Assembly: GCF_026210795.1 (NCBI RefSeq) | Contig: NC_089432.1 | Coordinates: 4,340,001-4,404,000 of the forward strand | Reading direction: 5' to 3' | Source of the DNA: Rhizophagus irregularis | Taxonomy: Eukaryota; Glomeromycota; Glomeromycetes; Glomerales; Glomeraceae | DNA: 64,000 nt | In this document: one piece after another, positions 5,895-56,880 of the stretch | Layout: each line of letters begins with the position of its first letter | How positions within the stretch are numbered: position 1 is the first letter of the stretch | Notes under the pieces: generated by a model | Told to the model about the DNA's origin: nothing | The model's input: the letters and a program-made list of their open reading frames with translations, nothing else | The model's database searches: none | Translations under genes and position numbers: made by a program

Positions 5895-7049
5895 ATTGTA
5901 AGCGGTGAGAAATAAAAGTGGTATTAGTGTATGGGAGTATCGCTTATATTAATTTCAGAATTATAATTTCCGAGTATTGTCGATCCATGTGGTGTAACAT
6001 ACTCAATAATAGGGTATTAAGTTGTATTATGTCAATCAAAGTTTACCGATGATGATCACGGAAATTATCATTTGACGCTTTAATACTCAAAAATTTTATT
6101 TATTAAACCATTTCATAAAATAAATAGTATGAAATGGAATACACATATTATTAATTTCTTATCAATTATAAATTATTTAAGTTGGTCTTTTTTTTAACGG
6201 AAATTTGCTAAACGTCACATACATATTACATAATTTCTTTATTTGATAAATACATAACGAATTTATTGTGAGAAATCCAAAGTCAAATTTTTGCTGGAAA
6301 ATTTTAATTTGATCATTTATTATTGAGAAATTATTTTTGGTTTATCTACTTTTAAATTTAGATAATTAAATGGGTCGGATACCATAGAAGTAATGTTTCT
6401 TGCTAAAAATTTTTTGATTTTTTTTGGCTGATTAGCTGGAATCACTTACGTATTACATTGATTTATTATGTCAATCTTAAGACTATTAGAGCGCTAAAAA
6501 AAGAAAGTTTTTCAATATTCAATACTTTACAATTTTTAATTTTAACTATAAATAAATTATTCCGAAATAAAATTGGTATTTCTACAATTTACCGTATATT
6601 TTTTTTCATCGGTAAAATGTTTATCATAAAAAATAAAAAAACGAGGAAAAAGAATTTGAGATCAAATCATTCCAAAATAAGTTTAGATAATTTTAACTAA
6701 ATAGTTTATTTTGAAACAAGGTATAATTGAAACTTGGAGGCTTAACTCCGAAGTCCACTAAAATGACGTGACGATGTACAATATAGATTATAAGTTACTC
6801 ATATCAGTCATATGAATAACAAGTGAGTCACAACACGTCATGAGTAATTGAGTATATAATTTAAAAAAATATAAATATCTTTTATCTTCTTTTTTTTCAT
6901 CTTCTTTATCTTCTTTTTTTTAGGTCTATTTTTTTCGTCCAGGTCTTCTCTTTATTAGGTCTCTTAGGCTCCTTTCTTTACGTCTTCCTTTAGGTATGTG
7001 GGTTGGGAGTGTGGGTTTGTGTTGTGTGTTGGTAGTGTGTGTATTTTTC
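5895..7049. other. Intergenic, AT-rich, leads into minisatellite
   Basis: Holds the likely promoter of the F-box gene near 5900-6000. The 80-codon frame at 6458-6700 is K/I/F-rich with no family signature and is not called. From about 6880 the strand becomes strongly T/C-rich, with repeated CTTCTTTTTTTT stretches, merging into the minisatellite. Confidence 0.45.
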
Positions 7050-7926
7050 GTATTCCCTCCTTCCCTTCGTCTCCCTTTCCCTTTCGTACTCCCCTTTCCT
7101 TTTCGCCCTTTTCGTACTCCACTTCCCCTTTCGTATTCCCCTTTCCCTTACGTTCTCCCCTTTCGTTCTCCCCTTTCCCTTTCGTATTCCCCGTTCCCTT
7201 TCGTATTCCCCATTCCCTTTCGTACTCCCCATTCCCTTTCGTATTCCCCATTCCCTTTCGTATTCCCCATTCCCTTTCGTATTCCCCTTTCCCTTTCGTA
7301 TTCCCCTTTCCCTTTCGTATTCCCCTTTCCCTTACGTTCTCCCCTTTCGTTCTCCCCTTTCCCTTTCGTATTCTCCGTTCCCTTTCGTATTCCCCTTTCC
7401 CTTTCGTATTCCCTTTTCCCTTTCGTATTCCCCTTTCCCTTTCGTATTCCCCTTTCCCTTTCGTATTCCCCTTTCCCTTTCGTATTCCCCTTTCCCTTTC
7501 GTATTCCCCTTTCCCTTTCGTATTCCCCTTTCCCTTTCGTATTCCGTATTTCCCTTTCCCTTTCGTATTCCGTATTCCCCTTTCCCTTTCGTATTCCCCT
7601 TTCCTTTCGTATTACCCCTTTCCCTTTCGTTCTCCTCTTTCGTATTCCCTTTCCCTTTCTTACTCCCCTTTCCCTTTCGTATTCCCTTACACTTTCGTAT
7701 TCCCCTTCCCTTTCGTATTCCCCTTTCCCTTTCGTATTTCCCTTTCCCTTACGTTCTCCCTTTCGTTCTCCCCTTTCCCTTTCGTATTCCCCCTTTCCTT
7801 TCGTTCTTCCCTTTCCCTTTCGTTCTCCCTTTCCCCTTCGTTCTCCCTTTCCCCTTCGTTCTCCCCTTTCCCTTTCGTATTCCCCTTTCCCTTTCGTACT
7901 CCCCTTTCCTTTCGTTTTCCCCTTCC
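7050..7926. repeat. 19-bp pyrimidine minisatellite (~45 copies)
   Basis: Tandem copies of TATTCCCCTTTCCCTTTCG with sparse variants (CGTTCT or CGTACT for CGTATT, and occasional 5-8 base deletions). The plus strand is almost pure pyrimidine. Because 19 is one more than a multiple of three, every reading frame cycles through the same 19-residue peptide, so all plus frames and some minus frames stay open for about 300 codons. These are artefacts of the repeat, not genes. A related but less regular C/T tract occurs at 20171-20450. Confidence 0.95.
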
Positions 7927-8160
7927 CCCCTGATCAATGTTGCTGCACCTCAACGTGGTGATCAGGTGACAACAAGTTTTTTAAAAGACTTGGCTAAGTC
8001 AGCAACAAATAATCATGAATGGATTTAATAGAACATGCCGCAAGTTTTAATTTTGAAAGAGCCGTTTATATTAACTTATTAACTCGTTTTCCGGAGATCC
8101 AAATACTATCGTAAATATTATCATTGAAGCCAGTTCAGAATTCGGATGAATATGGAAGTA
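7927..8160 (+). pseudogene. Decayed ORF tail next to minisatellite
   Basis: Non-repetitive sequence directly after the minisatellite reads PLINVAAPQRGDQVTTSFLK then DLAKSATNNHEWI before a stop; other frames give SFNFERAVYINLLTRFPEI. The stretch around GGTGATCAGG...AAGACTT partly resembles 31225-31265. Protein-like but unassigned; it may be the remnant of a repeat-family ORF. Confidence 0.25.
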
Positions 8161-9397: not shown

Positions 9398-11652
9398 TTA
9401 TTGATCATCTTGAAATGTCTTTAATTTAATTTGTGCATCTAGATCACCTTGTTCGGCAGATTTTTCATACCAATAAATTGCTTTTCCTATATCTTTTGTA
9501 ATTCCATCTCCTTCTTCAAACATTAAAGCAAGATTATATTGTGCCGTATTACTTCCTAAATTTGCAGCATTTTGATATAATTCAAATGATTTTTGTTTAT
9601 CAATTGTAGTTCCAATACCTTTATAATAACAATATCCTAACATTGTTATTCCATCTGGATAACCTCCTTCAGCTGATTTCTTATATAATTCAAAAGCTTT
9701 ATTATAATCTTTTTCAACAAAAATTCCATCTTCATAAAATCTACTAAGACTATATATTGCTATTATATTACCATTATTTGCAGCTTTTTCATACCAATAA
9801 AAAGCTTTTTGATAATCTTTTTCAACACTTATTCCTTTTTTATAAAAATAACCAACTCCTAATTGACCACTTGAAAAATTTTCATTAGCCACTTTTTCAT
9901 AATAATCAAAAGATAATTTTTCATTTTTAACCGTTCCATATCCATGAAAATAACAATGACCAGTAAAATATTGTGATAATAAATGATTTTTTTCTGATGC
10001 ATTAATAAATAAATTAAATGCTTTCTCATTATTTTCACTTATTACAATACCATAATGATTAAAATATCCAAGTAAAAAAATAGAATTTAAACTATTTTGA
10101 TTACTTAATAACCAATTATAAATATCTTGTGAATTTATATTATGATTATTAAAATATTCTATAACTTTCTGTTTCACTGAATTTCTTTCAAATCCTTTAT
10201 TCATTAATCTAAAAATAAAATCATTTATTTCATCAACTATAATATTATAATCTTCAATTGCTTGTTTACTTAATATTACCATAGGATCAACTTCTTTTAT
10301 ATTAATTCTATCAAAATCTTGAATAAGTTGAGATAAATCTCCTTGTGATTCTGAATTATTATTACTTAAACAAGCTTCTTTATTTGATATTTGATGATTT
10401 TTTAATATTATATCTGTTTTTTTAATTATGCCGTTTAGCCAATCAACTACTTGATATATCGTTGGACGATTATCTGGTTCCCCATCCCAACATTCTGAAA
10501 CAAATATAATTTAAAATTAATAATGATTAAATTACAAAAAATTACAAATTTTAAAATTTAAAATACTACTTACTAGTATAGACTTTAACATATTCATTAG
10601 GAGTATCAGGAACAATAGTTTCTCTAAGACCTTGCGAAATTTCCAAAGCTAAATCAATATCATATTGTTCATCCTCAACATAAAAGGGAGGTCGCCCACT
10701 AGATATCTCCCATAATAATACACCAATACTGTAATTATCACTTGTTTCATTTAATGTGTACATCTGTATTGATTGGTTATTATTATTTCCTTGTCTACTA
10801 AAGCTTTTTGGATCGACATAAGGAACCATCCCAAACAATTTAGATTGAAAATTGGATGATGCTTCAATTCTTTTGGATAATCCAAAATCCGATAATTTAA
10901 TTGTATTATTATGGACTAATATACTACAGGAGTGCTATTAGAGAAACATACAGTATGTATATTCAAATGAGTAATATAAATAAATGTATCATTATTATTA
11001 ATCATATAATGTTAAATGAATTACCAAATCATAATGCACAATTTCTTTGTTATGTAAGTACGATACAGCACAAGATAACTGGTATGCCATATTATATTTG
11101 TCATTCCAAGTAAGCTTACTAAAATTTTCTTTCAAATAACTTCGAAGAGTACCACCGTTAGCATATTCCATCACTAACTGGTAATTATTATGATTTTCTA
11201 ATGAATAAAAAAAAAATAATTAATAAAATGAACTTTATGAAATTTTGCAATCAAAAGATATGCTTAATAATACCTGACTCAAGTTTCGTTATTCCATAAC
11301 AACGAATAATGTTATTATGAAAATCAACTTCACGCTGAATTTTTAACTAATGAAAATTTTTAAAAATAAGTATATTAAACAAAATCATTAAACATAAAAA
11401 AAAATGTATTTTATATTAAATTACCTCACGAATGATCTCTTTCATGGTGATGTTATCAAGATTAAAAAAAGATTTTAACGCAAATTGGGTTTCTGAATTT
11501 TTCCAATTTGCACGATATACGCTTCCAAATTTTCCAGTACCAATATGTTGAATATTATTAAATTGTTTATATTCATAAAGTTTTAAATATTCCTTATCAA
11601 CAGTTTCTTCAATCCAATTAATCCATTCATTTGTATACTCGGTATCTTGCAT
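9398..11652 (-). CDS. TKL-type kinase fused to Sel1 repeats (altered catalytic loop)
   Basis: Five exons on the minus strand: 11425-11652, 11274-11346, 11025-11197, 10574-10934, 9398-10494. Lengths 228+73+173+361+1097 keep frame and give 643 residues. ATG at 11652 (MQDTEYTNEW) is preferred because the paralogue starts at the same place. The kinase has glycine loop IGTGKFGSVYRANW, lysine in ALKSF, and DFG in LSDFGLSKR. The catalytic loop reads HYDL-HSCSIL: R of HRD is Y and the metal-binding N is S, so activity is doubtful. Instead of APE it has PYVDPKSF. WDGEPDNRP closes the domain. From about residue 400 come six or more Sel1 repeats (A..GNIIAIYSLSRFYEDG type), a scaffold for protein contacts. 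Confidence 0.85.
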
Positions 11653-19676: not shown

Positions 19677-20123
19677 TTATGACTTTCATCAGCAAGTTTG
19701 AAAAGTGTTGATTCACACCAGTATACGCGTTGATCAACACCAGCTAGTTGTTCAACGCGTTTTACAATATTAATCAACACCCGTATACTAGAGTATATTA
19801 ACGCATAATGCTAATATACGCGTTGTTCAACTCTAATGTGTAGTTCAACACATTATGCATTGTTGTTCAACGCGCTGTATATTAACACTTAATTAAATTA
19901 AATTATATTTATTTTTACTCACCTTAGGAATTGAACCAACACCTCAACTTATACTATTAATTATCTCACGATCTAACCACTGTACTATTTAATTTAAGTA
20001 TATATTATATATATTAAAATTAATATTTAAAAAAAATTATTTCGGCATTGCGTAATGTACTCTATATCATGTGTATCACGTGATAATGGATTATTAATAA
20101 TTACCGCTGCGGACTGCGGTATG

Positions 20124-20170
20124 GCGAAAAAAAATTAAGCTTTTTTTAGCAAAGCTTAATTTTTTTTCGC
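20124..20170. repeat. Perfect 20-bp stem hairpin
   Basis: GCGAAAAAAAATTAAGCTTT, a 7-base loop (TTTTAGC), then the exact complement AAAGCTTAATTTTTTTTCGC. It sits directly before the C/T-rich tract, inside the 3.8-kb unit. Confidence 0.8.
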
Positions 20171-20450
20171 TTCTCTTTCACTTTCGTTCTATTTCTCCTT
20201 TCACTTTCGTCCCATTTTCCCCCTTTCACTTTCACTTTCACTTTCTTCCCATTTTCCCCTTTTACTTTCCCCTTTCACTTTCGTCCTGTTTCTCCTTCCA
20301 CTTCGTCCCATTTTCCCTTCATTTTCTTCCCGTTTTCTCCTTTCTCTCTCATTTCATTTAGTTCCCTTCACTTTTCTTTCCATTCTTCCTTCGTTTTCCC
20401 CTTTCCCTTTTCGTTCCTCCTTTTCTCTTTCGTTCTGCCCTTCCAACTCC
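20171..20450. repeat. Irregular pyrimidine tract
   Basis: Variants of CTTTCACTTTCGTCCCATTT and TTTCCCCTTTCACTTTCG, nearly pure C/T on the plus strand. It resembles the 7-kb minisatellite in composition but has no strict period. Confidence 0.8.
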
Positions 20451-20552
20451 CGTAAAATGAGCTCCATTCAACGGAAATGTAGATAATTTGATAAATTCCG
20501 TAATATAAGGTTATTAATTCCAGAGATATAAGCCTTTTACGGAAAAACTTTT

Positions 20553-21640
20553 GGTAAGTTTCGCAACGAAACGTTGCGAAACTATTTTTCATTTTCTAAC
20601 GAAACGTTGTTTAACGTTTTGAAATAATTTTTTTTAAATTTATTTAATCGGAACGTTATCTAACGTTCTGATTATTTATTTTCTTTTATTTTTTTAATCG
20701 GAACGTTGAAAAACGTTCCGAAATATAATTTTTTTTAATTTCTTTAATCGGAACGTTGGCTAACGTTCCGATTATTTTTTTATTTTATTTTTTTAACGAA
20801 ACGTTGAAAAACGTTTCATTTATTCTTTTTTTTTAACTTCTTTAATCAGAACATTGGTTAACGTTCCGATTTACATTTTTTTCTTGTTTTAATGAAACGT
20901 TTTTAACATTTCGTTATTAACTTTTTTTTCATTCCTTTTAATCGGAACATTGAAAAATGTTCCGATTTACATTTTTTTTCTTTTTTTAACGAAACGTTTT
21001 TAACGTTTCGTTAATAACTTTTTTTTCTTTTTTTTAATCGGAACGTTGGCTAACATTCCAATTTTTTTATTTTTTATTCTTTTTTTAACGAAACGTTTTT
21101 AACGCTTCGTTAATAACTTTTTTTTCATTTTTCTTTAATCGGAACATTGGCTAACGTTCCGATTATTTTTTTTTATTCATTTTTTTAATCAGAACATTGA
21201 AAAATGTTCCAAATTATTATTTTTTTTATTTTTTCTTTAATCGGAATGTTGGCTAACGTTCTGATTCTAGTTATTTTCTTTTATTTCATTTTTTTAATCG
21301 GAACGTTGAAAAATGTTCTGAAATATTAATTTTTTTTTCATTCTTTAATCGGAACGTTGGCTAACGTTCCGATTAATTTTTTTATTTCATTTTTTTAACG
21401 AAACGTTGAAAAACGTTTCAAATATTCTTTTTTTTAAATTTTTTTAATCGGAACGTTGGCTAACGTTCCAATTTTTTTTATTTCATTTTTTAACAAAACG
21501 TTTATTAACATTTCGTAATATAATTTTTTTTTTAATTTTTTTCAATCGGAACGTTGGCTAACGTTCCGATTTTTTTTTATTACATTTTTTAACGAAACGC
21601 TTATTAACGTTTTGTAATTTTTTTTTTCATTTTTTTTTCC
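20553..21640 (+). repeat. Array of about 21 hairpins in T-rich spacers
   Basis: Two palindrome types alternate about every 50 bases: type 1, AATCGGAACGTT-GGCTAACGTTCCGATT (short variable centre, e.g. at 20746, 21138, 21347, 21544), and type 2, AACGAAACGTT-(T)n-AACGTTTCGTT (e.g. 20597, 20988, 21086, 21397). Copies differ by point changes that are often compensated on the opposite arm (GGAACATT with AATGTTCC at 20939), so the stem is kept. The array starts at GTAAGTTTCGC (20553), itself within a perfect-stem palindrome, which looks like an intron donor. The type 1 centre GGCTAAC resembles a branch-point sequence. Spacers are almost pure T. Confidence 0.85.
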
Positions 21641-21651
21641 TTTCTTCTTTT

Positions 21652-22800
21652 AGGTCAGCGGGTGGGCTTTCAAGTTCTGAAGAACGGAAAACCAAGATTC
21701 GTAAGATAAGTACGAATCTTGGTTTAATTTTTTTTTCTTTTTTTTTTTAATATTATTAATGAACGGTTACTAATAACCGTTTTTTTCTTTTTTTAGGTTT
21801 CGGGTGGGCTTCCAAAGATCGGAAAACCCCAAAGATTCATAAGTAAGAATCTTCATATATATATTTTTTTTGTTTTTTTTATTAATGAACGGTTACTAAT
21901 AACCGATCTTCTTTTTATTTTTTTAGGTTCGGTGGGCTTTCAAAGAACGAAAACCCAAAGATTCGTAAGTACGAATCTATATTTTTTTTTGTTTTTTTAA
22001 TTTTATTAATGAACGGTTACTAATAACTATTCTTTTCATTTTTTTAGGTTCGGGTAGCTTATGGTCTTTGGAAAAAGTGGAACCAAGTTTCGTATTACGA
22101 ATCTTGGTTTTATTTATTTTTTTTTTAATATTATTATAAATGGTTACTAATAACCGTTCTTTTTTTTTGTTTAGGTTCGGGTAGTTTTCCAAAAATCAGA
22201 GGAACCAAGATTCGTAAGTATTCCGAATCTTGGTTTTAATCTTTTTCTTTTTTTAAAAAAAATACTATGGACGGTTACTAATAACCGTTTTTTTCTTTGA
22301 TTTTTATAGGTTCGGGTGATTTCCGACGAATGGATGAACCAAGATTCGTAAGGTATGAATACGAATCTTGGTTTTATTATTTATTTTTTATTATTATTTT
22401 GGAACGGTTTACTAACCGTTCTTGTATTTTTTTTTATAGGTTCGGGTGGGCTTCCGAAGAACGGAAAACCTAAAGATTTGTAAGAAATCTTTACTTTTTT
22501 TTTATTTTTTTAATTTTTTTATTATTACAAACGGTTTACTAACCGTTCTTGTATTTTTTTTTTAGAAGTTCAGGTGGGTTTCGGACAAACGAAGGAACCA
22601 AGATTCGTAAGTACGAGTACGAATCTTGGTTTTTGTTTTTTTATTATTATTTTGGAATGGTTTACTAACCGTTCTTTCTTTTTTTATAGGTTCGGGTGGG
22701 CTTCCGAGTTCCGAATAATGGAAAAAAAAACCAAAGATTCGTATTATGATACGAATCTTGGGTTTTTTTAATTTGTTTTTTTTATCTATTTTTTATAGGT
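21652..22800 (+). repeat. Tandem exon-like units (~9), each with two palindromes
   Basis: Nine units of about 110-135 bases. Each has TTTTTTAG or TTTATAG, then a ~38-48-base exon-like block starting GGTTCGGGTGGGCTTC and ending AACCAAGATTC, then GTAAGTACGAATCTTGGTTT. The donor GTAAG lies in the loop of the palindrome CCAAGATTC-GTAAGTAC-GAATCTTGG. A T-rich run leads to a second palindrome, GAACGGTTACTAATAACCGT or AACGGTTTACTAACCGTT, whose loop holds TACTAA(C), the branch-point consensus. Then poly-T and the next AG. Block lengths vary and are not multiples of three, and no long frame crosses the units, so a protein is unlikely. Palindromes are kept although arms vary. Confidence 0.8.
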
Positions 22801-23110
22801 ATCCGGTTCCTTCAGCGTTGGACTTTTAATTAGATTTCTCAACGTTAGACATGGCGTTGCTGTAGATTAGCATTTTGGAATGAATTGGTAAGTTTTGAAT
22901 AAAACTTACATTTTTTTATTTTATTTTTTTTATTTTTTTTTTAAATTTCTCTTTTCTTTTTGTAGTCCTCAGTCAGATTTTTAGAATAAGATTGTGTAAG
23001 TTTCGTTAACGAAACTTAATTTTTGTGTTTTTTTTATTTGAAACCTTATCTTGTTATGGTTGTGTTACCAGGGGCGCTTTGTCAATGGAAATTTAGTACG
23101 TTGATCGCTT
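22801..23110 (+). other. Exon-like blocks with palindromic donors after the array
   Basis: After a last TTTTATAG, block 22799-22889 ends at GTAAGTTTTGAATAAAACTT, where the donor starts a stem-loop. After TTTTTGTAG a second block (22967-22997) ends at GTAAGTTTCGTTAACGAAAC, part of a 22-base perfect palindrome. A third begins after CAG near 23073. The style is the same as in the array: every donor sits at a palindrome. Confidence 0.5.
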
Positions 23111-23559
23111 AAAAATCCGCGGCAATCCAATTATAACAAGAGGAATTGATTTTTCATTAGATAATTTGATAATTTAATGTAATTTGTATTGTAACTGTAT
23201 TTATAAATAAATTTACAATTAATGAAATGTTAATAATATACAATAATATATATATTAATAAATTAATACTATTAAATTAACTACATTGCTATACGCGTTT
23301 TTAATATCAATATACGCGTTTTTATACATTATATACACGTTATTAAACTAGTGTTATTTTACTGTATGTTGTTTTACACATAAAACACTGTTGCACTACG
23401 CGGTTTTCAACATTTTTAAGTGGTGTTGATTGACAAAGGGTTTGTATCTTTACACTTTTTGGTGTTGAGCAACACATGGCATTTTTCAACACTTTATACG
23501 CCTGTTTAAAACTTGCTGATGTTATGAAAGAGACGAAATTCTTGTGGTGACAGAGTGGC

Positions 23560-25159: not shown

Positions 25160-26500
25160 TTATTTATATGGTAGATGTGGTAGATGAAAATTTACCTTTT
25201 TATTAGGCTCTTCAGGTGGAATATCATTAATTTTTGCCAAAAGTATTCCACGAATGGTCGCAAATAGTTTGGTTACTTCACTTTTAAGGTGTTCATCATT
25301 AACCTTAACTTTGTGAAGTCCGAGTATCAAAGGCTCTTTGGTTACTGCCACAAATTTATTTTTGAAAGTGACCATTGTGAAGTACCACTTATCTCCTGTC
25401 ATTACCATACCATATACATATTCAAAATCATTTTGATCTCTTTTTCTCTTGAGATCTTTAAGGTTGTGCTATGTGTGGAATTTTATAATTTTTAAATTCA
25501 CAATTCATACTTAATACAAATAAAGGAATATAATACTTACTTGACAGGCAGTTTGCACTTGAATAAAATTTTCACAAAATCCATACTCTAAATCCACAAC
25601 CTTAACTTCTGTCACACAGAATATTTTTTTAATGTATGTAATGGCAAAATCTGTATGACCTTTCCCGTAAGTACCAGATATATTAAATTCCCGATGCATC
25701 TTAATATTATAATTTTTGTCAAATGTTGAAACCACTCCACGTAAAATAGTTGCAACAAAATCTGTGCGTTCTGCCTCATTCTCACATTTGTCTAAGCTTC
25801 CAGATGTTTTTAAGATTAGCTTAAGAAAATCAGTATGAGTTAGTGAAATTAAACATTAACCATACAAACACAACTGCATGATATAAAAAGATTTTGAAGC
25901 AAACCTTTATGTAAGCTACAGCCAAATTGATATTGTCATCGTATAATGACATATCCGCACTAGGTGCTTAAGAAGAAAATAAAAGTCAGAATTACAATTA
26001 AAGCTACTAATTATCAGATTACTTACGAAGTTCTAACTGCAGCAATTCGTTCATTCTCTCTATTGATACCCCAAAGATAGACTCCAATTGTAAGAACTTC
26101 TTATAGGCAGAGTTCATTCTCTCTATTGATACCCCAAAGATAGACTCCAATTGTGAGAACTTCTTATAGGCAGAGAAATCTTGTTGTGCTATATAAAGTA
26201 ATTAAAAATATCAGAAATGATTGAGTTAATGCATGGAAATGTAGTTTTACAGGTGGAAAAATGATGTATTAATTAGAATAAAGTTAAATACTTACAACAT
26301 TCCACTTTGAAAGAAATTTGTTTTAATTTCTCATTATGATCAGGATGGGCTTCCAGGAACGCTATAAGCCCATCCTGATCATTAATTTTTGCAATTAAAT
26401 TAAGTGGAATTATCAAAATTGTTGATGCATCAATGTCTTGCAACAACTTACCATATTCATTTTTTATTTTTATGGTAAGTTGTTGCCAGACATTTTTCAT
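25160..26500 (-). CDS. PD-(D/E)XK nuclease-like protein (Crinkler-type domain)
   Basis: Five exons: 26296-26500, 26027-26188, 25905-25966, 25541-25819, 25160-25447; 996 bases in frame, 331 residues, ATG 26500 (MKNVWQQLTI). All introns are short with GT donors and AG acceptors; the last acceptor (CAAG) is the least certain. The C-terminal half reads CENEAERTDFVATILRGVV, GKGHTDFAITYI, FCVTEVKVVDLEYGF and FIQVQTACQ: E...D...ExK...Q, the active-site spacing of the PD-(D/E)XK superfamily as in restriction-like domains of Crinkler effectors. The N-terminal half has a 21-residue exact-type tandem duplication (SAYKKFLQLESIFGVSIERM). No signal peptide is visible. It may work in the nucleus on DNA; that is inference. 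Upstream exons at 27.2-27.5 kb could belong to it. Confidence 0.7.
26049..26174 (-). repeat. 63-bp in-frame tandem duplication in the nuclease-like gene
   Basis: Copies 26049-26111 and 26112-26174 differ at about one base. 63 bases equal 21 codons, so the frame is kept. Near-identity shows the duplication is recent. Confidence 0.95.
26338..26380. repeat. 15-bp perfect inverted repeat inside coding exon
   Basis: GATCAGGATGGGCTT (26338-26352) and AAGCCCATCCTGATC (26366-26380) with a 13-base loop, in the first exon of the nuclease-like gene, encoding DQDGL...AHPDH. Confidence 0.9.
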
Positions 26501-37327: not shown

Positions 37328-37870
37328 CACAGTAAAATTCGATAAACCGGATCTTCGATAAACCGGATTTGGGCCTAAACCGGACTTTTTTGCTGGAACC
37401 AAATCACGTATATTAAAATAGGCTCGATATACCGGAGTTTACTAGTAAAAGCTCGATATTCGCTATAACGGATCAATTTTCTAACCAGCAATAGTAAAAA
37501 TGATTCGATAAACCGGATCACATGACTGGGAACCAATAAAATTTAAGTAACGTGATGCGGTAAATCTTAAATTTGGCCGGAATTATAAAAATCTTAATTC
37601 CGGCTGAAGTTAAGTATTACTTATATATCAATTAAAATATTTTATATTCATTTTCATGACCTCTATATTCATTTTCATGACCTCTATAACTTAAGTCTTG
37701 ATGAAAAAATCAAATTATAGTGTATATTAGTTTTATTAGCATGAAAATTTTTTAAAAATTCAATATAATAGATTTTCAATATATCGAAATTTTTTCGCTA
37801 AACCGGATATCCCGATAAACCGGATATTTTTAGTGGAACCGATAGATCCGGTTTATCGAATTTCACTGTG
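37328..37870. mobile_element. Pogo/Tigger-like MITE, TSD TA
   Basis: Left end CACAGTAAAATTCGATAAAC then CGGATC; right end in reverse complement CACAGTGAAATTCGATAAAC then CGGATC. TA flanks both (37326-37327, 37871-37872). The CAGT-containing termini and the internal reuse of CGATAAACCGGA fit pogo/Tigger-type Tc1-mariner derivatives. 543 bp, no transposase ORF. Its right end overlaps the 3' end of the Smr-Sel1 gene. Confidence 0.75.
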
Positions 37871-39236
37871 TACTTTCAACTTCCATCAATAATCTAAGCC
37901 CTTCATCTTTTTCATTCTCATCTTCTTTATTAAATAAAATATTTCCTAATTTTTTCTTGGCGAAAATATCATTATTATTACTAAATTCAATAGCCTTCCT
38001 AAAATAATATTCAGCCTGTTTTTCATCCTTTTTAATACCATCATCACTTTCATAAAGTAAACCAAGATTATAAGCGGATTGACTATCATATAAGTCAAAA
38101 GATTTTTTATACCACTTAAAAGCTCTTTTTAATTTAATTTTAGCTAAATTATTAAGTTTTAAATCACTTAGTTTTTTTACTTTGGTAAGATTATTCACTT
38201 CTAAAGGTCTTATTAAATGGCTATTATGATATATTGAAGCCATATTTCTCATGGCAATTCTAGATAATTCTTTTTCTTCATCATTCTTAGGGTATTCCAA
38301 TTTATTTATAACATCTTTAAATAAACCTTTTGCTCTCGTTGGATCAAAAAATAATTTACCAATAGAATGCATATAACCTAAACATAATTTTGCTTCAAGA
38401 GAACCTAATTTTTCAGCTTTTTTATACCAAGACATAGCTTCCTTACAATTTTCTTTTGGACCTTTCATATAATAACCTGCTAATGCCATCTTATATTTTA
38501 TATCATTGTTTTTTTTAGCATATTCTTCCCATTCTTTTAAAACTTTATCGTCAATTGTATAAAAATTATTACTTTTATCATTTTCACCATTATGAATCCT
38601 TTTTATAAATACTTCGTAAGTACCATCACCTTTTATAGGTTCACCATCAACTAAATTTTTAATTGATTCATCTTTTATCCATTCAGGAAAATTTTTATTT
38701 AAATTTCCACTACTATTCCAATGACTGTTACCTTTACCTGTAATAATAAAAAGTGAAGCATTTTCAATGTAAGGAACATTTTTAATTTTTGTAATAACTA
38801 TATTTTTCGCTTCATCAACAGATTCTCCTTCGTGAAAATCAATTCTAGCAGTAGATAAAGTAATCTTTGGATTTAATAATTCTGAAGTATTTAAACATTC
38901 GTAATAACCTAAAAAATCATTAACCTTATTTTTCTTTATCCTTTGCTTATCACTTGAAAACCAATCTTTTAAATCGTTTTTAACTTTACTACTAAAATCA
39001 TTAGGAATTGTTATCTTATCTATAAGAGATATGACAAATTTTTTCAAACTTTTATTACTAGAAGGTTTTTCTTCAGTAGATGCAAATGTGATATCCATTT
39101 TATCTATTTCTGAAATATATCTTGTACTAACAGTTTTAAATGATTGAGCATCTAAACTTAAAGTATCAAAAGATAAGATATCGGAAAGGCCAGTAGAAAT
39201 CTTATCATTTTCTGAATTTTCTAATGTATCAGTCAT
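37863..39236 (-). CDS. Smr-like domain plus Sel1-repeat protein
   Basis: Single exon, 457 residues. Residues ~1-80 are S/T/K-rich without a clear fold. Residues ~130-215 read ARIDFHEGESVDEAKNIVIT, ASLFIITGKGNSHWNSSGNL and GDGTYEVFIK. This is the layout of an Smr domain (LDLHG, then TGxG, then a final strand after GGG); here DLHG is DFHE while ITGKGN is kept, so nucleic-acid binding or nicking is possible but not assured. From ~235 onward are Sel1 repeats (KMALAGYYMKGP, AKLCLGYMHSIGKL, SAYNLGLLYESDDGIKKDEK). The combination is unusual. The last three codons (ACA CAG TGA) lie in the terminal repeat of the pogo-like element. Confidence 0.7.
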   Translation of the reverse strand: MTDTLENSENDKISTGLSDILSFDTLSLDAQSFKTVSTRYISEIDKMDITFASTEEKPSSNKSLKKFVISLIDKITIPNDFSSKVKNDLKDWFSSDKQRIKKNKVNDFLGYYECLNTSELLNPKITLSTARIDFHEGESVDEAKNIVITKIKNVPYIENASLFIITGKGNSHWNSSGNLNKNFPEWIKDESIKNLVDGEPIKGDGTYEVFIKRIHNGENDKSNNFYTIDDKVLKEWEEYAKKNNDIKYKMALAGYYMKGPKENCKEAMSWYKKAEKLGSLEAKLCLGYMHSIGKLFFDPTRAKGLFKDVINKLEYPKNDEEKELSRIAMRNMASIYHNSHLIRPLEVNNLTKVKKLSDLKLNNLAKIKLKRAFKWYKKSFDLYDSQSAYNLGLLYESDDGIKKDEKQAEYYFRKAIEFSNNNDIFAKKKLGNILFNKEDENEKDEGLRLLMEVESTQ

Positions 39237-43160: not shown

Positions 43161-44204
43161 ATGCAAGATACCGAGCATACAAATGAACGAGAATTTAATG
43201 ACACCTCTTTAAGTATTAATAATTCAGAATTTCAAGGAGATTTATCTCAACTTATTCAAAATTTTGATAAAATTAATATAAAAGAAATTGATCCTATAGC
43301 AATATCAAGTATACAAGAAAATCCTTCAACTGAAATAGATTTTAACATGATAGTTGATGAAATAAATAATTTGATTTTTAAATTATTAAATAAAGGATTT
43401 AAATTTAATTTAGTGAAACAGCAAGTTATTGAATATTTTAATGATCATAATATAAGTTCACAAGAATTTTATAATTGGTTATTAAATAATCAAAATAGTT
43501 TAAATTCTATTTTTTCACTTGGATTTTTTAATTATCATGGAATTGAAACAAATAAAAATGATGAGAAAGCATTTAATTTGTTTATTAAAACTTCAGAAAA
43601 AAATCATATATTAGCACAATATTTTGTTGGTGAATTTTATTTATATGGTTATGGAACTATAAAAAATGGTAAATTAGCTATTGAATATTATAAAAAAGTA
43701 GTTGATAAAAATTTTACACCTGGACAAGTAAGCATTGGTTATTGTTATTCAAATGGAATAGGTGTTGAAAAAGATTTAATAAAGGAAATTTATTGGTATA
43801 AAAAAGCTGCAAAGAATGGAAACTTAATGGCAATATATAATCTTGGTATCATATATGAAGATGGAATTGGTATCGAAAAAGATAATAATAAAGCTTTTAA
43901 ATTGTTTAAGCAATCAGCTGAAGGAGGATATTTAGATGGAATAATGATGCTAGGATATTGTTATGATAATGGTATTGGAACTAAAATTGATAAATATAAA
44001 GCATTTGAATTATATCAAAATGCTGCAAATTTGGGAAATGATATAGCACAAAATAATCTTGCTTTATTGTATGAAGAAGGAGATGGAATTGCAAAAGATA
44101 CAGAAAAAGCGATATATTGGTATGAAAAATCTGCCAAACAAGGATATGGGTTAGCAAAAAATAATTTAAGTAACCTTCTCGATAATTTATACTTTGATTA
44201 TTAA
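43161..44204 (+). CDS. Sel1-repeat protein, kinase-less derivative of a fusion gene
   Basis: Single exon, 347 residues from ATG 43161 (MQDTEHTNE). A longer frame upstream uses no ATG. The first nine residues equal exon 1 of the kinase-Sel1 genes (MQDTEYTNEW), and the sequence then jumps to NNSEFQGDLSQLIQNFDKIN, which in those genes lies in exon 5 after the kinase domain (NNSESQGDLSQLIQDFDRIN). The kinase domain and all introns are thus missing. A helical linker is followed by six or seven Sel1 repeats (AQYFVGEFYLYGYG, GQVSIGYCYSNGIGVEKD, AIYNLGIIYEDGIGIEKD, GIMMLGYCYDNGIGTKID). Such a protein could bind the same partners as the fusion without kinase activity. Promoter is the shared TACTGCGGTAC type. 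Confidence 0.85.
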   Translation: MQDTEHTNEREFNDTSLSINNSEFQGDLSQLIQNFDKINIKEIDPIAISSIQENPSTEIDFNMIVDEINNLIFKLLNKGFKFNLVKQQVIEYFNDHNISSQEFYNWLLNNQNSLNSIFSLGFFNYHGIETNKNDEKAFNLFIKTSEKNHILAQYFVGEFYLYGYGTIKNGKLAIEYYKKVVDKNFTPGQVSIGYCYSNGIGVEKDLIKEIYWYKKAAKNGNLMAIYNLGIIYEDGIGIEKDNNKAFKLFKQSAEGGYLDGIMMLGYCYDNGIGTKIDKYKAFELYQNAANLGNDIAQNNLALLYEEGDGIAKDTEKAIYWYEKSAKQGYGLAKNNLSNLLDNLYFDY

Positions 44205-46419: not shown

Positions 46420-48713
46420 TTAGTTTTCATCCATATCTAAATACGTTAAATTATTTTAAATAAAAAATCGAATTTAGTAATTAAAGAAATTTTTGACTAA
46501 ACAAACTTAATCTTTTAAAATACTTACTCTCGGGAAGTTCAAATTCATGTTGTTCTTCAGAATGAAAATTTGGATTATTATATATTTCATCATCATCTAT
46601 AAATAAGAAATTCGGAAGTATAAAATTAATTAATTATCATTATTACAAAAAGATAATTATTTATGTACCATCAATATTAACGTGATATTTCTTTATTTGT
46701 TCTTGCATTATTTCTTGAACATCTAAAATTAAACAAAATTACATTTAATATTAAGTGATTAAGTTAATACGTTAATTTATTAATTTACTTACCATTTTTT
46801 GAATTTCTCTTGAATATTTTTAATAATTTTTTACTATTAACTAAAAAAATTTAGCCATATATTATTATTGATTTATTTGATTAATTCCAATAAAAAATAA
46901 TAAAATTACCTTTGAAAAAGCTACTTATTTTTGATGAACTGTTCTTCCGAATATTTAATTTATCAAAATCATCAACTAAAAAAAAGAAAACAATCAAAAA
47001 ATATTTTAGAATTATTAGATTTATAATATTAATGTTACAAAAAATCAAATACTTACTATTATTAGGGATATGAAAGTCATATGATTTGTTACTGTGAAAT
47101 GCTAATAAAAGGAGACAATCTATCATTAATTATTAATAAATAAAAATTGTAAAATAATTGCTTAATTTATACCCTGTTGCTCTTCTATATGTTAAAAAAT
47201 GAAAATATTATATTAGTTATTGAACTTTTTTATAATATTTAATACTAAAATAAATACCTTCTGTTGCATTTCTTGGTTCAGAAAGATTTTCAAATTGATG
47301 AACTTTACTTGTAAATAATCTGCTACTGCTAATATAATTTTCTAAGCTATTCATTTCCGATCTATTATCATTTTCTTCTAATTTAGTTGATTCATTTGAG
47401 TTAGAATTTTGGTAATATAAATTAAGTTCTCTTATTTTTTTCCAACTTGTAACAATGTCTGGTCTGTTTAATGGATTAGCATCCCAGCATTGTATCATTA
47501 AACTTTTATATTCTATAGGAGTTCCTGGTACAATTTTTGGTCTTATACCTTTAATTATATTCATTGCAAGATAATAATCATGTTCATAATTAATAAATGG
47601 TGGTTGGCCAGATGAAATCTCCCACATAAGCATTGCAATACTATAAATATCAGATTTAAAAGTAGTTTCTTTTCCTGCAATAACTTCTGGTGCAATGTAA
47701 GGAAGATTTCCATATATACTTTTTAATGGTTTATCTGCAGGTCCACAAAATCCAAGATCACTAATATCAAATTTTTGACTTCTTTGAGCAAAAAGTATAT
47801 TTCCAGAATGCAAATCTCTATGAATTGCATTTTCATAATGATGAATTTTATAAAGTGCATCAATTATATTAACAGCAATTTGAATTCTTTCTTTCCATGT
47901 AAATTGATTATGATTTTGTTGTAAATATTTTCTTAAATCTGTATCAAATTTATCCATTACAAGCATATAATCTCCATTTAATAGATCTTGTGTCAAACCA
48001 TAACATTGAACAATCGAATCTGACCATTTATTACTTATATTTAAATGTGAAGTAGCCTATAAAATAAAGAAATGTTATAAAAGCTTTTAAATAAATAATT
48101 GTAACATTATTAGATTACAAACCTCTTCAAACCAACGTTTATTTGCACTTTCAAAATTTTCTAATCTTTTAAGTACCACATCTTGTTCCCCAAATCTTTT
48201 TAATTGTTGTTCTTTAGAATCCCATTCATCATATCTTCCATGAATCCACTCGGCTGTATATATTTCAGAGCATCCACCTTTTGTTAAATAATTAATATTT
48301 TTTAAATTACTATATGGAATCCATTCAACTATACTATCTGGTTCAATTGCTTTCATTTGACATTCTTGTATTAAATTATCAATGTAATCATTTCCAGATG
48401 TCCAATTTGAAAATTTTGCTTTTAAATAATTTCGAACACAAAATTCACAATATAATGTAGCTAAACATTTTTGGTTACAATTTTCACAAACTCTTCTTAT
48501 TCCTTCATTAAAAACAATTTTATTACTGTCATAAATTTTAGTCAATTTTCTTATTGCTTCAGATTTTTCATCTTTTGTAAGTGATTCATCGGCAAGAATT
48601 ACTTGTTTTTGAAATTTATTTAATTCATGTAAATTATTGTAAATATTATAATCTATTAGTGCATATGCTCTATCAATTGCAGCATTAATTAAATTTTCTC
48701 TAATAACAGACAT
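46420..48713 (-). CDS. Type B protein kinase with CxxC N-terminus and multi-exon tail
   Basis: Nine exons, minus strand: 48123-48713, 47258-48056, 47173-47184, 47057-47101, 46910-46975, 46793-46840, 46669-46722, 46528-46596, 46420-46436; 1701 bases, frame kept, 566 residues. First exon is 591 bases as in the 13-kb paralogue, and the 12-base third exon (AAGAGCAACAGG) encodes EEQQ. Paired cysteines in RRVCENCNQKCLATLYCEFC; kinase motifs LTKGGCSEIYTAEW (second G of GGF-type loop followed by C), VVLKRLEN, HRDLHSGNIL, ISDLGFCGPAD, YGNLPYIAPEV, MIQCWDANPLNRP. The tail has IPNNS, FFKG, IYNNPNFHSEEQHEFELPE and ends NMDEN. It looks functional. Its promoter region (48714-48900) shows no motif shared with type A genes. 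Confidence 0.85.
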
Positions 48714-51465: not shown

Positions 51466-53686
51466 ATGTCTTATGATGAAAATCAATCAGTTAACGCTGC
51501 AATTATTAGAGCAATTGCATTAATGGATTATAATATTTGTAATAATATACACAAACAATTTGAATTTGTGCGACAAACACTTCTTGATGATAATTCACTT
51601 ACAGAAAATGAAAAATATGAAGCAAAATTAATATACACTAAAGTTTATGATTCTTATAAAATTATGAATAATGATGGATCAAAAAGAATTTGTGATAATT
51701 GTAATCAAGAATGTTTAGCTACATTATACTGTGAACTTTGTATTCGAAATTATTTAAAAACAAAATTTTCAAATTGGACATCTGGAAATGTCAATATTGA
51801 TAATTTAATAAAAGAATGTCAAATGGAAACATTAAAACCAAATAAGATAATGGAATGGATTCCGTATAATAATTTAAAAAATATTAAATATTTAACAAAA
51901 GGTGGATTTTCAGAAATTTATACAGCAATCTGGATGGATGGGTATTTTATTGAATGGGATTCTAAAGAAAAGCAACTAAAAAGATTTGGAAATCGATGTG
52001 TAGTGCTCAAAAATTAGAAAATGTTAATAATGCAAGCCAAAGTTGGCTTGAAGAGGTTTGTAATTTAAACTATTATTTAACATTTTGACAATATTCTAAT
52101 AAGGTATTAATGAATTTTTTGATAGGCTAAATCCCATTTAACCCTGAGCACTAAATACCCAAATATTGTTCAATGTTATGGTTTAACACAAGATCCATCA
52201 AATGGAAATTATATGCTTGTAATGAATGAAATGGATACAAATTTAAGAAAATATTTACAACAAAATCATAGACAACTTACATGGAAAGAAAGAATTCAAA
52301 TTGCTGTTAATGTAATTAAATCAGTTAGAATAATTCATAAAGAAAATGCAATTCATAGAGATTTGCATTCTGGAAATATATTATTTAAAACTAGATTTTA
52401 TATTAGTGATCTTGGATTTTATGGACCTGCAGATAAACCATTAAAAAGTATATATGGAAATCTTCCTTATGTAGCACCTGAGGCTATTATTGGAAAAGAA
52501 CAGACTTTTAAATCTGATATTTATAGTATCGCAATGCTTATGTGGGAAATTTCATCTGGACAACCACCATTTATTAATTATGATAATGATTATGATCTTG
52601 CAATGAATATTGTTAATGGTATAAGACCAAAAATTGAACCGGGAACTCCTTCAGAATATAAAAATTTAATGAAACAATGTTGGGATGCTGATCCATCAAA
52701 CAGACCTGATATTAATACACTTCGGAAAAAAATAAATGAAATTAATTTATTTTATCAAAAAGAATTAGATGAACTATTAACTCAACCAGAAGAAAATAAT
52801 AGTTTCGAAATAGAACATCATACTAGCAGTAACATATTATCTACAAGTAGACTTCATCATTTTGAAAATCTTCCTGAACCAAGAAATGTAACAGAAGGTA
52901 TTATATTATGAACCTTGTATTAAATATTTTAAAAAAGTACTAATATCACGCTAAATATAATTAATGATATCTTTTTATTTATTAAATCGATAGGGGAATT
53001 AGAGGGTATGAATTATTTTTAAATTCATTTACCTTTTATAAATTATTAAATAATTAATAAAATTTATAGAATTTTATAGTAAATCATTTAACTTTTACAT
53101 TCCTGACAATAGTAAGTATTATTGGATTTGTATTATTTTATACTTTAAAATAAAAATATTTCATCAATATAAACTTTTTTTTTAGTTAATGATATTGGTA
53201 AATCGAATAATCAAGAAAATAGTACATCAAAAATAAGCACTATATTTAAAGGTGATTTGATATTTTTCATAAATAAATATTAATTTACGAATCATTTAGT
53301 TAATAGTAAAAAATTATTCAAAATATTTAAAAAGATTTTAAAAAATGGCAAGTAAAATGATTATTAATTATTTTAGTACGTTCACTAAATTTTTAGATGT
53401 TCAAAATGAAGATAAAAGAGAAATGATGCAACAACAAATAAATAAACATCATCATAATGTTAATTGTATGTAATTTATTTCATAATAATAGTAATTGATT
53501 TTATATTATTGTGTTAATTATAATATATTTTTACAGATGAAGATGATGTATATAATAATCCAAATTTTCATTCAGAAGAACAAGATACATTTGAACTTCC
53601 TGATGGTAAGAATTTTTTTTTGTAAATATTAAATTTTTTAAATAGTCCTTAAATTACTAAAATTATTTTTGCTCCTAGATATTTAA
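51466..53686 (+). CDS. Type B protein kinase, one-base frameshift in exon 1
   Basis: Nine exons: 51466-52055, 52126-52897, 52994-53005, 53070-53111, 53186-53251, 53300-53347, 53397-53465, 53537-53605, 53679-53686. Exon 1 has 590 bases where both paralogues have 591; the missing base is in an A-run at the VVLKN(K)LEN position (~52011), giving a stop right after the ATP-site lysine. Everything else is intact and in frame: KRICDNCNQECLATLYCELC, LTKGGFSEIYTAIW, HRDLHSGNIL, ISDLGFYGPAD, YGNLPYVAPEA, LMKQCWDADPSNRP, microexon GGGAATTAGAGG, tail IPDN and VYNNPNFHSEEQDTFELPDI. The donor after exon 6 is GC (GCAAGT) where paralogues have GT. Either a very recent pseudogene or a sequencing error in a homopolymer. 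Confidence 0.75.
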
Positions 53687-55851: not shown

Positions 55852-56880
55852 ATGCAAGATACCGAGTATACAAATAAACGAGAATTTAATGACACCTCTT
55901 TAAGTATTAATAATTCAGAATTTCAAGGAGATTTATCTCAACTTATTCAAAATTTTGATAAAATTAGTATAAAAGAAATTGATCCTATAGCAATATCAAG
56001 TATACAAGAAAATCCTTCAACTGAAATAGAGATAGTTGATGAAATAAATAATTTTATTTTTAAATTATTAAACGAAGGATCTAAATATTTAGTGAAACAG
56101 CAAGTTATTGAATATTTTAATGATCATAATATAAATTCACAAGAATTTTATAATTGGTTATTAAATAATCAAAATAGTTTAAATTCTATTTTTTTACTTG
56201 GATTTTTTAATTATCATGGAATTGAAACAAATAAAAATGATGAGAAAGCATTTAATTTGTTTATTAACTCTTCAGAAAAAAATCATATATTAGCACAATA
56301 TTTTGTTGGTGAATTTTATTTATATGGTTATGGAACTATAAAAAATGGTAAATTAGCTATTGAATATTATAAAAAAGTAGTTGATAAAAATTTTACGCCT
56401 GGACAAGTAAGCATTGGTTATTGTTATTCAAATGGAATAGGTGTTGAAAAAGATTTAATAAAGTCAATTTATTGGAATAAAAAAGCTGCAAAGAATGGAA
56501 ACTTAATGGCAATGTATAATCTTGGTATCATATATGAAGATGGAACTGATATGAAAAAAGATAATAATAAAGCTTTTAAATTGTTTAAGCAATCGGCTGA
56601 AGGAGGATATTTAAATGGAATAATGATGTTAGGATATTGTTATGATTTAGGTATTGGAACTAAAATTGATAAATATAAAGCATTTGAATTATATCAAAAT
56701 GCTGCAAATTTAGGACAAGATTTAGCACAAAATAATCTTGCTTTAATGTATGAAGAAGGAGATGGAATTGCTAAAGATATAGATAAAGCAATATATTGGT
56801 TTGAAAAATCTGCCAAACAAGGAAATGAGTTAGCCAAAAATAATTTAAGTAACCTTCAGGAAAAAATCAATAATTTATAG
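55852..56880 (+). CDS. Sel1-repeat protein, kinase-less derivative of a fusion gene
   Basis: Single exon, 342 residues from ATG 55852 (MQDTEYTNKR). A longer open frame extends to 55678 but has no ATG-led homologue and overlaps the promoter. Structure is as in its partner at 43161: exon-1 codons of the kinase fusion joined to the linker NNSEFQGDLSQLIQNFDKIS and the Sel1 repeats. It differs by a small in-frame loss after NPSTEIE and a few substitutions in repeats (DGTDMKKDNN for DGIGIEKDNN; DLGIGTKID for DNGIGTKID), and ends LQEKINNL. Both copies staying open, with mainly conservative changes, suggests that the shortened protein is still selected. Confidence 0.85.
   Translation: MQDTEYTNKREFNDTSLSINNSEFQGDLSQLIQNFDKISIKEIDPIAISSIQENPSTEIEIVDEINNFIFKLLNEGSKYLVKQQVIEYFNDHNINSQEFYNWLLNNQNSLNSIFLLGFFNYHGIETNKNDEKAFNLFINSSEKNHILAQYFVGEFYLYGYGTIKNGKLAIEYYKKVVDKNFTPGQVSIGYCYSNGIGVEKDLIKSIYWNKKAAKNGNLMAMYNLGIIYEDGTDMKKDNNKAFKLFKQSAEGGYLNGIMMLGYCYDLGIGTKIDKYKAFELYQNAANLGQDLAQNNLALMYEEGDGIAKDIDKAIYWFEKSAKQGNELAKNNLSNLQEKINNL

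What the first reader, a model, noticed from the sequence alone, without database searches (positions are those of the whole stretch)
20553..22800. Tandem mini-exon array with palindromes enclosing every donor and branch point
About nine units of 110-135 bases each contain an AG acceptor after poly-T, a 38-48-base exon-like block, a GTAAG donor in the loop of CCAAGATTC...GAATCTTGG, and TACTAA(C) in the loop of AACGGTT...AACCGTT. Upstream, about 21 more hairpins alternate in two types every ~50 bases. Arm changes are often compensated. Seen: the repeats and their stems. Known: GTAAG donors and TACTAAC branch points are fungal splice signals. Inferred: the transcript may be spliced in many combinations, may yield circular or repeated small RNAs, or the stems may gate splicing. 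No long ORF crosses the units, so a protein is unlikely. I know of no described system of this form.
Basis: partly seen in the sequence, partly recalled or inferred. Interest (0 to 1): 0.88.

Follow-up and report, generated by a model that had tools for sequence, protein, structure and literature searches.

The report
Transposon-borne tandem mini-exon array
In the root-symbiont fungus Rhizophagus irregularis, jumping DNA elements carry long rows of tiny exon-and-intron units whose splice signals sit in hairpins; gene catalogues already list such rows as uncharacterized proteins, but they look more like a spreading splicing pattern than like a real protein family.

Summary
The repeats, splice words and donor stems are real and far from chance. 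The array is the inside of a 3.8-kb mobile element (window 19687-23521) with terminal inverted repeats and a 2-bp target duplication; six other copies share its ends. A 7.8-kb relative with these ends encodes a Plavaka transposase. A second element type, with CACTA ends and 3-bp duplications, carries the same units. The branch-point hairpin has 1291 genome matches (up to 2 mismatches). Published R. irregularis proteins can be rebuilt by splicing at these sites: six map letter for letter to relatives (80 introns), and one maps onto the window, 127 residues with 4 mismatches and 11 introns, the first being the 1100-nt stretch of 21 hairpins. These are gene models; reads were not available. A conserved protein is unlikely: exon lengths ignore frame, exons vary more than introns, and 10 tested proteins have no Pfam match above cut-off. 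Compensation is only partly right: donor stems covary between unit types, but single changes break pairs more often than they keep them. Best reading: a non-autonomous transposon family carrying an amplified, probably spliced, probably non-coding array. Ten paper searches found no description of it.

The parts
19685..19686 (.). 2-bp target-site duplication TT (left); right copy at 23522-23523
   Evidence: 7 of 7 family-1 copies have matching 2-bp flanks, four different words
19687..23521 (+). whole non-autonomous transposon (3835 bp)
   Evidence: shared ends and different flanks in the copies L031-L035 and L040
19687..19703 (+). left terminal inverted repeat CATCAGCAAGTTTGAAA
   Evidence: a 22-base left-end word occurs 80 times genome-wide at up to 3 mismatches, control 1
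23505..23521 (-). right terminal inverted repeat
   Evidence: a 32-base right-end word occurs 61 times at up to 3 mismatches, control 0
20170..20445 (+). C/T-rich tract before the first exon, possible promoter
   Evidence: read; a C/T tract also precedes the array in 11 of 14 family-2-type loci held at length; promoter role inferred
20446..20553 (+). first exon (start approximate)
   Evidence: the mapped part of public protein P0121 starts at 20525 and splices after 20553
20554..21653 (+). intron 1, 1100 nt, contains the 21 hairpins (20598 to about 21616)
21654..21700 (+). mini-exon 1 (P0121 uses a later donor at 21710)
21797..21842 (+). mini-exon 2
21927..21964 (+). mini-exon 3
22048..22091 (+). 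mini-exon 4 (GTATT donor; P0121 uses a GTTTC donor at 22087)
22175..22213 (+). mini-exon 5
22310..22347 (+). mini-exon 6 (P0121 uses a donor at 22353)
22440..22479 (+). mini-exon 7 (P0121 uses only its first 6 nt)
22566..22606 (+). mini-exon 8
22690..22740 (+). mini-exon 9 (GTATT donor; P0121 uses only its first 6 nt)
22799..22887 (+). downstream exon (P0121 enters it at 22871)
   Evidence: parses it as an 89-nt exon in copies L031-L033; for the window
22888..22965 (+). intron with an unrelated donor hairpin GTAAGTTTT..AAAACTTAC
   Evidence: stem 9 bp; spliced in P0121
23060..23521 (+). 3' subterminal part, shared with the transposase-encoding relative L051
   Evidence: read by eye

Best explanation
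The feature is the cargo of a non-autonomous Plavaka-type DNA transposon of Rhizophagus irregularis. Between its ends lies one + strand transcription unit: a C/T-rich leader, a first exon, a 1.1-kb first intron swollen by 21 tandem hairpins of branch-point type, and a tandem array of about nine mini-exons of roughly 45 nt parted by introns of roughly 85 nt. Shown: ends, target duplications, dispersed copies, a transposase-encoding relative, the same mini-exon units in CACTA-ended elements, and splice signals that public gene models use. Inferred: the unit is transcribed and spliced; copies spread by transposase acting in trans and lengthen by unequal exchange; the RNA has no conserved protein product; local self-complementary stems keep pairing inside each unit and cover exon end and donor, slowing splicing and giving variable isoforms; the copies then decay largely neutrally, in good part at CpG.
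For: Shared ends with different flanks in 7 of 7 copies, 2-bp duplications 7 of 7. L051, with the same ends, encodes Plavaka transposase PF18759, E 5.3e-34. Of 14 family-2-type loci examined, 11 have both CACTA ends and 10 of these have an exact 3-bp duplication. Branch hairpin 1291 matches at up to 2 mismatches, donor hairpin 550 at up to 3, controls 0. Of 128 public proteins held, 6 are rebuilt letter for letter from held loci, with 80 introns, 64 with GTAAG donors and 72 of 75-99 nt; most of the others belong to strains or places not held. P0121 maps on the window, 127 residues, 4 mismatches, 11 introns; 0 of 40 shuffled decoys map under the same settings. The annotation of this assembly used short and long RNA reads (PMC10234402, passages). 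Exon length modulo 3 (0, 1, 2) is 72, 53, 80 of 205 distinct exons.
Against: No RNA reads were examined. P0121 uses odd donors and two 6-nt exons, which looks like a gene caller threading a frame; it maps to the window but not to copies L032-L035, and in L031 only by a spurious 40-residue fit. At the CpG of the exon-intron junction, donor-destroying G-to-A words are as common as harmless C-to-T words (19 against 13; 16 against 13 under the filter), so donors are not visibly protected; 7 of the 19 have another GTAAG a few bases on. Absence of AG in intron 1 counts little: one 99-base unit lacks AG by chance with P 0.024.
Confidence: 0.7

Rival explanations
1. Plain satellite inside a transposon: the splice words are fossils or accidents, and the published proteins come from gene callers threading open frames.
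For: Donors and exons show no constraint: mean pairwise difference of exons 5.5%, donors 4.6%, remaining intron 2.6% among six copies; donor-killing changes as common as safe ones; odd exon choices in P0121.
Against: Donor, TACTAA branch, pyrimidine stretch and AG recur in order with introns of 74-98 nt (214 parsed introns). Public models under three sets of names (OCT59, GLOIN_2v, RIR_jg) use these sites, and the OCT59 annotation used RNA reads.
Confidence: 0.17
2. A rapidly evolving repeat-protein gene family, with mini-exons open in all frames so that many exon combinations can be translated.
For: Spliced stop-free frames of 194, 266 and 199 codons against shuffle 95% points of 150, 168 and 105; 102 of 205 distinct exons lack stops in every frame, 7.1 expected by shuffling; annotated proteins exist.
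Against: Other TA words (ATA, GTA, TTA, CTA) are as depleted as stops, and exon lengths ignore frame; no Pfam family above cut-off in 10 tested proteins (two weak matches below it); exons vary more than introns; in the window 2 of 10 parsed exons are stop-free.
Confidence: 0.07
3. The array is functional for the transposon: hairpin-gated splicing makes its RNA look like a host message, or feeds small-RNA pathways, and so changes silencing.
For: Array present in two element types; an unrelated 9-bp stem at the donor 22888; 83 distinct donor arm pairs form standard pairs in 88.2% of cells against 82.5% in 500 shuffles (maximum 84.5%). The species shows methylation and small RNAs at transposons (PMC8647823, passages).
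Against: Single arm changes are wobble-safe 37 times and of the breaking transition type 47 times; 8 kept and 26 lost in the upstream hairpins: no sign of RNA-level selection now. Shuffles ignore relatedness. Donors 20554 and 22996 have stems of 6 and 3 bp. No expression data.
Confidence: 0.15
4. Introner: each intron unit is itself a mobile intron that inserts in genes.
For: More than a thousand branch-hairpin matches; DNA transposons are reported to become introners (PMC9860276, passages).
Against: Inverted repeats and target duplications bound the whole element, not the intron. Six places chosen because one exact branch-hairpin hit was listed there all held two or more units in the 600-900 bases fetched; 0 of 6 showed a lone intron.
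Confidence: 0.04

Closest known systems
Plavaka transposons (CACTA/CMC/EnSpm group), reported as prevalent in R. irregularis strains (PMC11075540, passages)
   Same: Terminal inverted repeats, short target duplication, a relative with a Plavaka transposase
   Different: The window copy has no transposase; its inside is a mini-exon array
CACTA (EnSpm) elements
   Same: Family-2 ends begin CACTA, with 3-bp duplications; the match to the superfamily's usual ends is recalled
   Different: Transposase of family 2 not looked for; the same array inside
Introners and introner-like elements (PMC9860276, passages)
   Same: Repetitive introns with ready splice sites and a link to DNA transposons
   Different: Here many introns sit in one element, which brings its own exons
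Internally symmetrical stwintrons of Hypoxylaceae (PMC8469720, abstract and outline)
   Same: Fungal introns with strong inverted symmetry that proliferate
   Different: There the repeats are 45-55 nt and terminal, single intervening sequences in genes; here short local hairpins around donor and branch point, in tandem
SP7-like effectors of R. irregularis (PMC11333574, passages)
   Same: Same fungus; repeat proteins with several paralogues
   Different: They are described with a signal peptide and one conserved intron before the repeats; here an intron parts nearly every repeat. Not compared by sequence
Pack-type elements that carry gene pieces (recalled)
   Same: Non-autonomous element with exon-intron cargo
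   Different: No host parent gene was identified; the cargo is a tandem array

Membership tests
Plavaka-type DNA transposon (non-autonomous) | terminal inverted repeats shared by dispersed copies | tested here: met
   17-base ends; 80 and 61 genome hits of the end words, controls 1 and 0
Plavaka-type DNA transposon (non-autonomous) | target-site duplication | tested here: met
   2 bp, 7 of 7 copies; L051 also TT, read by eye. The length typical of the family was not looked up
Plavaka-type DNA transposon (non-autonomous) | Plavaka transposase in an element with the same ends | tested here: met
   L051 ORF, PF18759, E 5.3e-34
Plavaka-type DNA transposon (autonomous) | the copy itself encodes the transposase | tested here: not met
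   no ATG-started ORF of 150 aa or more within 19687-23521
CACTA element (family 2, L036 and kin) | CACTA ends and 3-bp duplication | tested here: met
   14 loci examined, 11 with both ends, 10 with an exact 3-bp duplication; L037 fails
CACTA element (family 2, L036 and kin) | EnSpm-type transposase in a relative | not tested
   none was sought
Introner | the mobile ends coincide with the intron ends | tested here: not met
   ends bound the whole 3.8-kb element
Introner | lone copies inside host genes | tested here: inconclusive
   0 of 6 fetched places; not genome-wide
Protein-coding repeat gene | reading frame kept by exon lengths | tested here: not met
   205 distinct exons: 72, 53, 80 for length modulo 3 = 0, 1, 2
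Protein-coding repeat gene | exons more conserved than introns | tested here: not met
   5.5% against 2.6% mean pairwise difference in six copies
Spliced transcription unit | split RNA reads at the junctions | not testable with these tools
   only public gene models seen
SP7-like effector | signal peptide, sequence likeness | not tested
   compared with passages of the paper only

The most novel reading that the evidence does not exclude
A self-spreading splicing module: a tandem array of mini-exons with donor and branch point held in hairpins, passed between two transposon types, whose spliced, hairpin-gated RNA helps its carriers escape or exploit RNA-based silencing.
Probability: 0.12. Interest if true: 0.87.

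Novelty: new variant of a known kind. Interest (0 to 1): 0.6.

Why it matters
It shows a DNA transposon carrying not a recognisable gene but a long row of ready-made introns and tiny exons, with more than a thousand branch-hairpin matches in one genome, in a fungus that lives with most land plants. It would explain a set of uncharacterized proteins as transposon arrays: the 120 listed of 133 hits and the 30 hits are all named R. irregularis, so such models could inflate counts of young genes. It also offers a natural test bed for how hairpins around splice sites affect splicing, since many units with different stems exist in one genome.

Tried and rejected
Rejected or set aside: RNA family (no Rfam hit at gathering score in the window); tRNA genes (none in the window or L051); phage origin (only 22300-23150 was searched, no match). 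AG depletion in intron 1 (3 against 26.6 expected) first looked strong but rests on one repeated unit (P 0.024). Stop depletion in exons is not specific to stops. Long dsRNA between the C/T tract and the purine-rich exon of family-2 loci: in five loci the best hits are about 70% complementary over 55-115 bases, so not pursued. Public proteins count as gene models only. In one search the L031 row is a spurious 40-residue fit and is not counted; L032-L035 did not map. No structure prediction was run. Ten paper searches list no paper on such arrays, judged by titles, abstract starts and, for six papers, passages or outline; the library holds open-licence papers only.

Dropped rows and limits: one search scored 40 of 353 first-look candidates and gave 174 matches, not all listed; I grouped them by hand into about 40 places, of which the window and 20 others were read at length and three more (L024, L027, L028) as 3.6-kb matches. 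One search left out 3 of 144 hairpins and used 83 distinct arm pairs. One search kept 287 of 365 exon candidates by their end pattern, 205 distinct. One search lists at most 12 pieces per locus. L044 also carries a diverged (74%), inverted, partial family-1 copy that is not counted.

Full report
WHAT IS THERE. The window belongs to a 146.7-Mb genome in 32 contigs. Public proteins named Rhizophagus irregularis lie on contigs whose lengths equal those of this genome, for example 5829432, 5085394, 5728094 and 5223174 bases, so the genome is R. irregularis; a 32-chromosome assembly of strain DAOM197198 is described in PMC10234402 (passages). The nine array donors all have perfect stems of 7-15 bp; none of 84 GTAAG words elsewhere in the window reaches 7. 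Branch stems are less regular (4 of 8 reach 7 bp; controls 12 of 199), and the donors at 20554 and 22996 have 6 and 3 bp.

IT IS A TRANSPOSON. A genome search with the array scored 40 of 353 first-look candidates, so more places may exist. Five other places are 91-97% identical to the query. These five and L040 share the stretch between CATCAGCAAGTTT and its inverted copy while their flanks differ. With the window, 7 of 7 copies are flanked by a 2-bp direct repeat: TT, TT, GA, TT, TT, GT, TG. The left-end word occurs 80 times and the right-end word 61 times, controls 1 and 0. One pair of ends about 7.8 kb apart (L051) holds a C2H2 zinc finger and a Plavaka transposase, PF18759, E 5.3e-34; by eye L051 shares the 3' subterminal stretch and sits in a hAT-like gene (hAT dimerisation match E 0.0073, below cut-off). 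The window copy has no ORF of 150 aa or more. So it is a non-autonomous relative.

A SECOND CARRIER. In other loci (L036, L048 and kin) the same mini-exon units lie between CACTAGTCGAAAAAGG-type ends. Of 14 such loci examined, 11 show both ends and 10 of these an exact 3-bp duplication; L037 does not. In the pieces listed, homology between the families covers the array and the last part of intron 1. The branch hairpin has 1291 genome matches at up to 2 mismatches, the donor hairpin 550 at up to 3, controls 0.

SPLICING. Parsed introns run 74-98 nt, median 85, n = 214; exons have median 45 nt, n = 287. I spliced a family-2 locus in a script and searched its translation: 133 proteins, the 120 listed all named R. 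irregularis, best 98% identity over 99%. To check junctions, I asked which of the 128 public proteins held can be rebuilt exactly from held loci: 6 can, with 80 introns, 64 GTAAG and 8 GTACG donors. They carry OCT59, GLOIN_2v and RIR_jg names. For the window family, P0121 (RIR_jg38281.t1) maps onto the window over residues 7-133 with 4 mismatches and 11 introns, the first exactly 20554-21653, after two stricter settings had failed; 40 of 40 shuffled decoys fail under the settings that fitted. The same protein did not fit copies L032-L035. Gene RIR_jg29739 has three differing models in the list. These are gene models, not reads. The paper on this assembly says that Illumina and Nanopore RNA reads guided the models, but I saw no evidence for individual genes.

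PROTEIN OR NOT. Spliced stop-free frames are long (194, 266, 199 codons; shuffle 95% 150, 168, 105), and 102 of 205 distinct exons have no stop in any frame (7.1 by shuffling). But non-stop TA words are about as rare, and exon lengths modulo 3 are 72, 53, 80; 10 of 10 tested proteins have no Pfam match above cut-off; and in six copies exons differ 5.5%, the remaining intron 2.6%. A conserved protein is unlikely.

THE HAIRPINS. Among 83 distinct donor arm pairs, 88.2% of cells pair (500 shuffles: mean 82.5%, maximum 84.5%), with 62 two-sided changes (shuffles mean 20, maximum 43); 53 of the 62 fall on the three outer pairs and 6 are an inner A-T to T-A swap. Relatedness inflates this. Single transitions show no preference for G-U-safe changes: 37 safe, 47 breaking; in the 21 upstream hairpins 8 single changes keep the pair, 26 lose it, 2 double changes keep it. 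C-to-T and G-to-A make up 68 of 132 single changes and 21 of 34; by eye many are at CpG, and transposons of this fungus are CpG-methylated (PMC8647823, passages). At the CpG of the exon-intron junction, G-to-A words that destroy the donor (19) are as frequent as harmless C-to-T words (13); at the CpG of the right arm, which serves as a control, the two kinds number 8 and 9. The branch word CTAAY shows no difference at 40 sites in six copies, a weak hint of constraint. My reading is that the stems were shaped when the units arose and are now decaying.

HOW IT MOST LIKELY WORKS. The transposase of full-length relatives moves the element (shown: ends, duplications, relative; inferred: action in trans). 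Unequal exchange lengthens the array (inferred). The + strand is transcribed from the C/T-rich end and spliced (gene models; reads not seen). Stems make each unit fold on itself, cover the exon end and often the donor, and put the branch site in a small loop (folding); I infer slowed and variable splicing. A role in escaping silencing is possible but untested.

NOVELTY. Transposons with ends of this kind, and transposon-linked introns, are known. A tandem mini-exon array as transposon cargo, present in two element types and with hairpins at the splice sites, was not seen in the lists of ten paper searches. I rate it a new variant of a known kind.

Noticed in passing
window 19925-19995: tRNA-like stretch on the minus strand with A-box-like and B-box-like words (motifs recalled), near the left end and, by eye, also in L051; ARAGORN finds no tRNA in either.
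   Followed up: partly
window 7046-7928: 883-bp tandem C/T tract (49 copies of a 19-mer), resembling the tract before the array; a 321-aa ORF at 6996-7961 runs through it.
   Followed up: no
L051 (C4:4284400-4292600): Plavaka element inserted in a hAT-like gene with a TT duplication; by eye the flanks join in frame. A second gene on the opposite strand, with a repeated GKAAS-type stretch, has no Pfam hit above cut-off.
   Followed up: partly
L052 about 285 and L053 about 630: In two places a stretch reading CAGCCCGACGAC or its inverse abuts a donor hairpin of the array, as if another element inserted there.
   Followed up: no
L048 3125-3650, L050 3243-3790: These family-2 loci hold an exon of 511 and 518 nt by my parse made of purine repeats; it is about 70% complementary to the upstream C/T tract over about 100 bases.
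   Followed up: partly
window 26049-26175: 63-bp direct duplication at 98% match.
   Followed up: no
window 9401-10282, 37866-39236, 43161-44201, 55852-56877, 59907-60824 and 47220-47966, 52213-52908: Of 10 ORFs scanned, five have Sel1 repeats and two a protein kinase domain; both kinds are named as high-copy genes of this fungus in PMC8647823 (passage).
   Followed up: no
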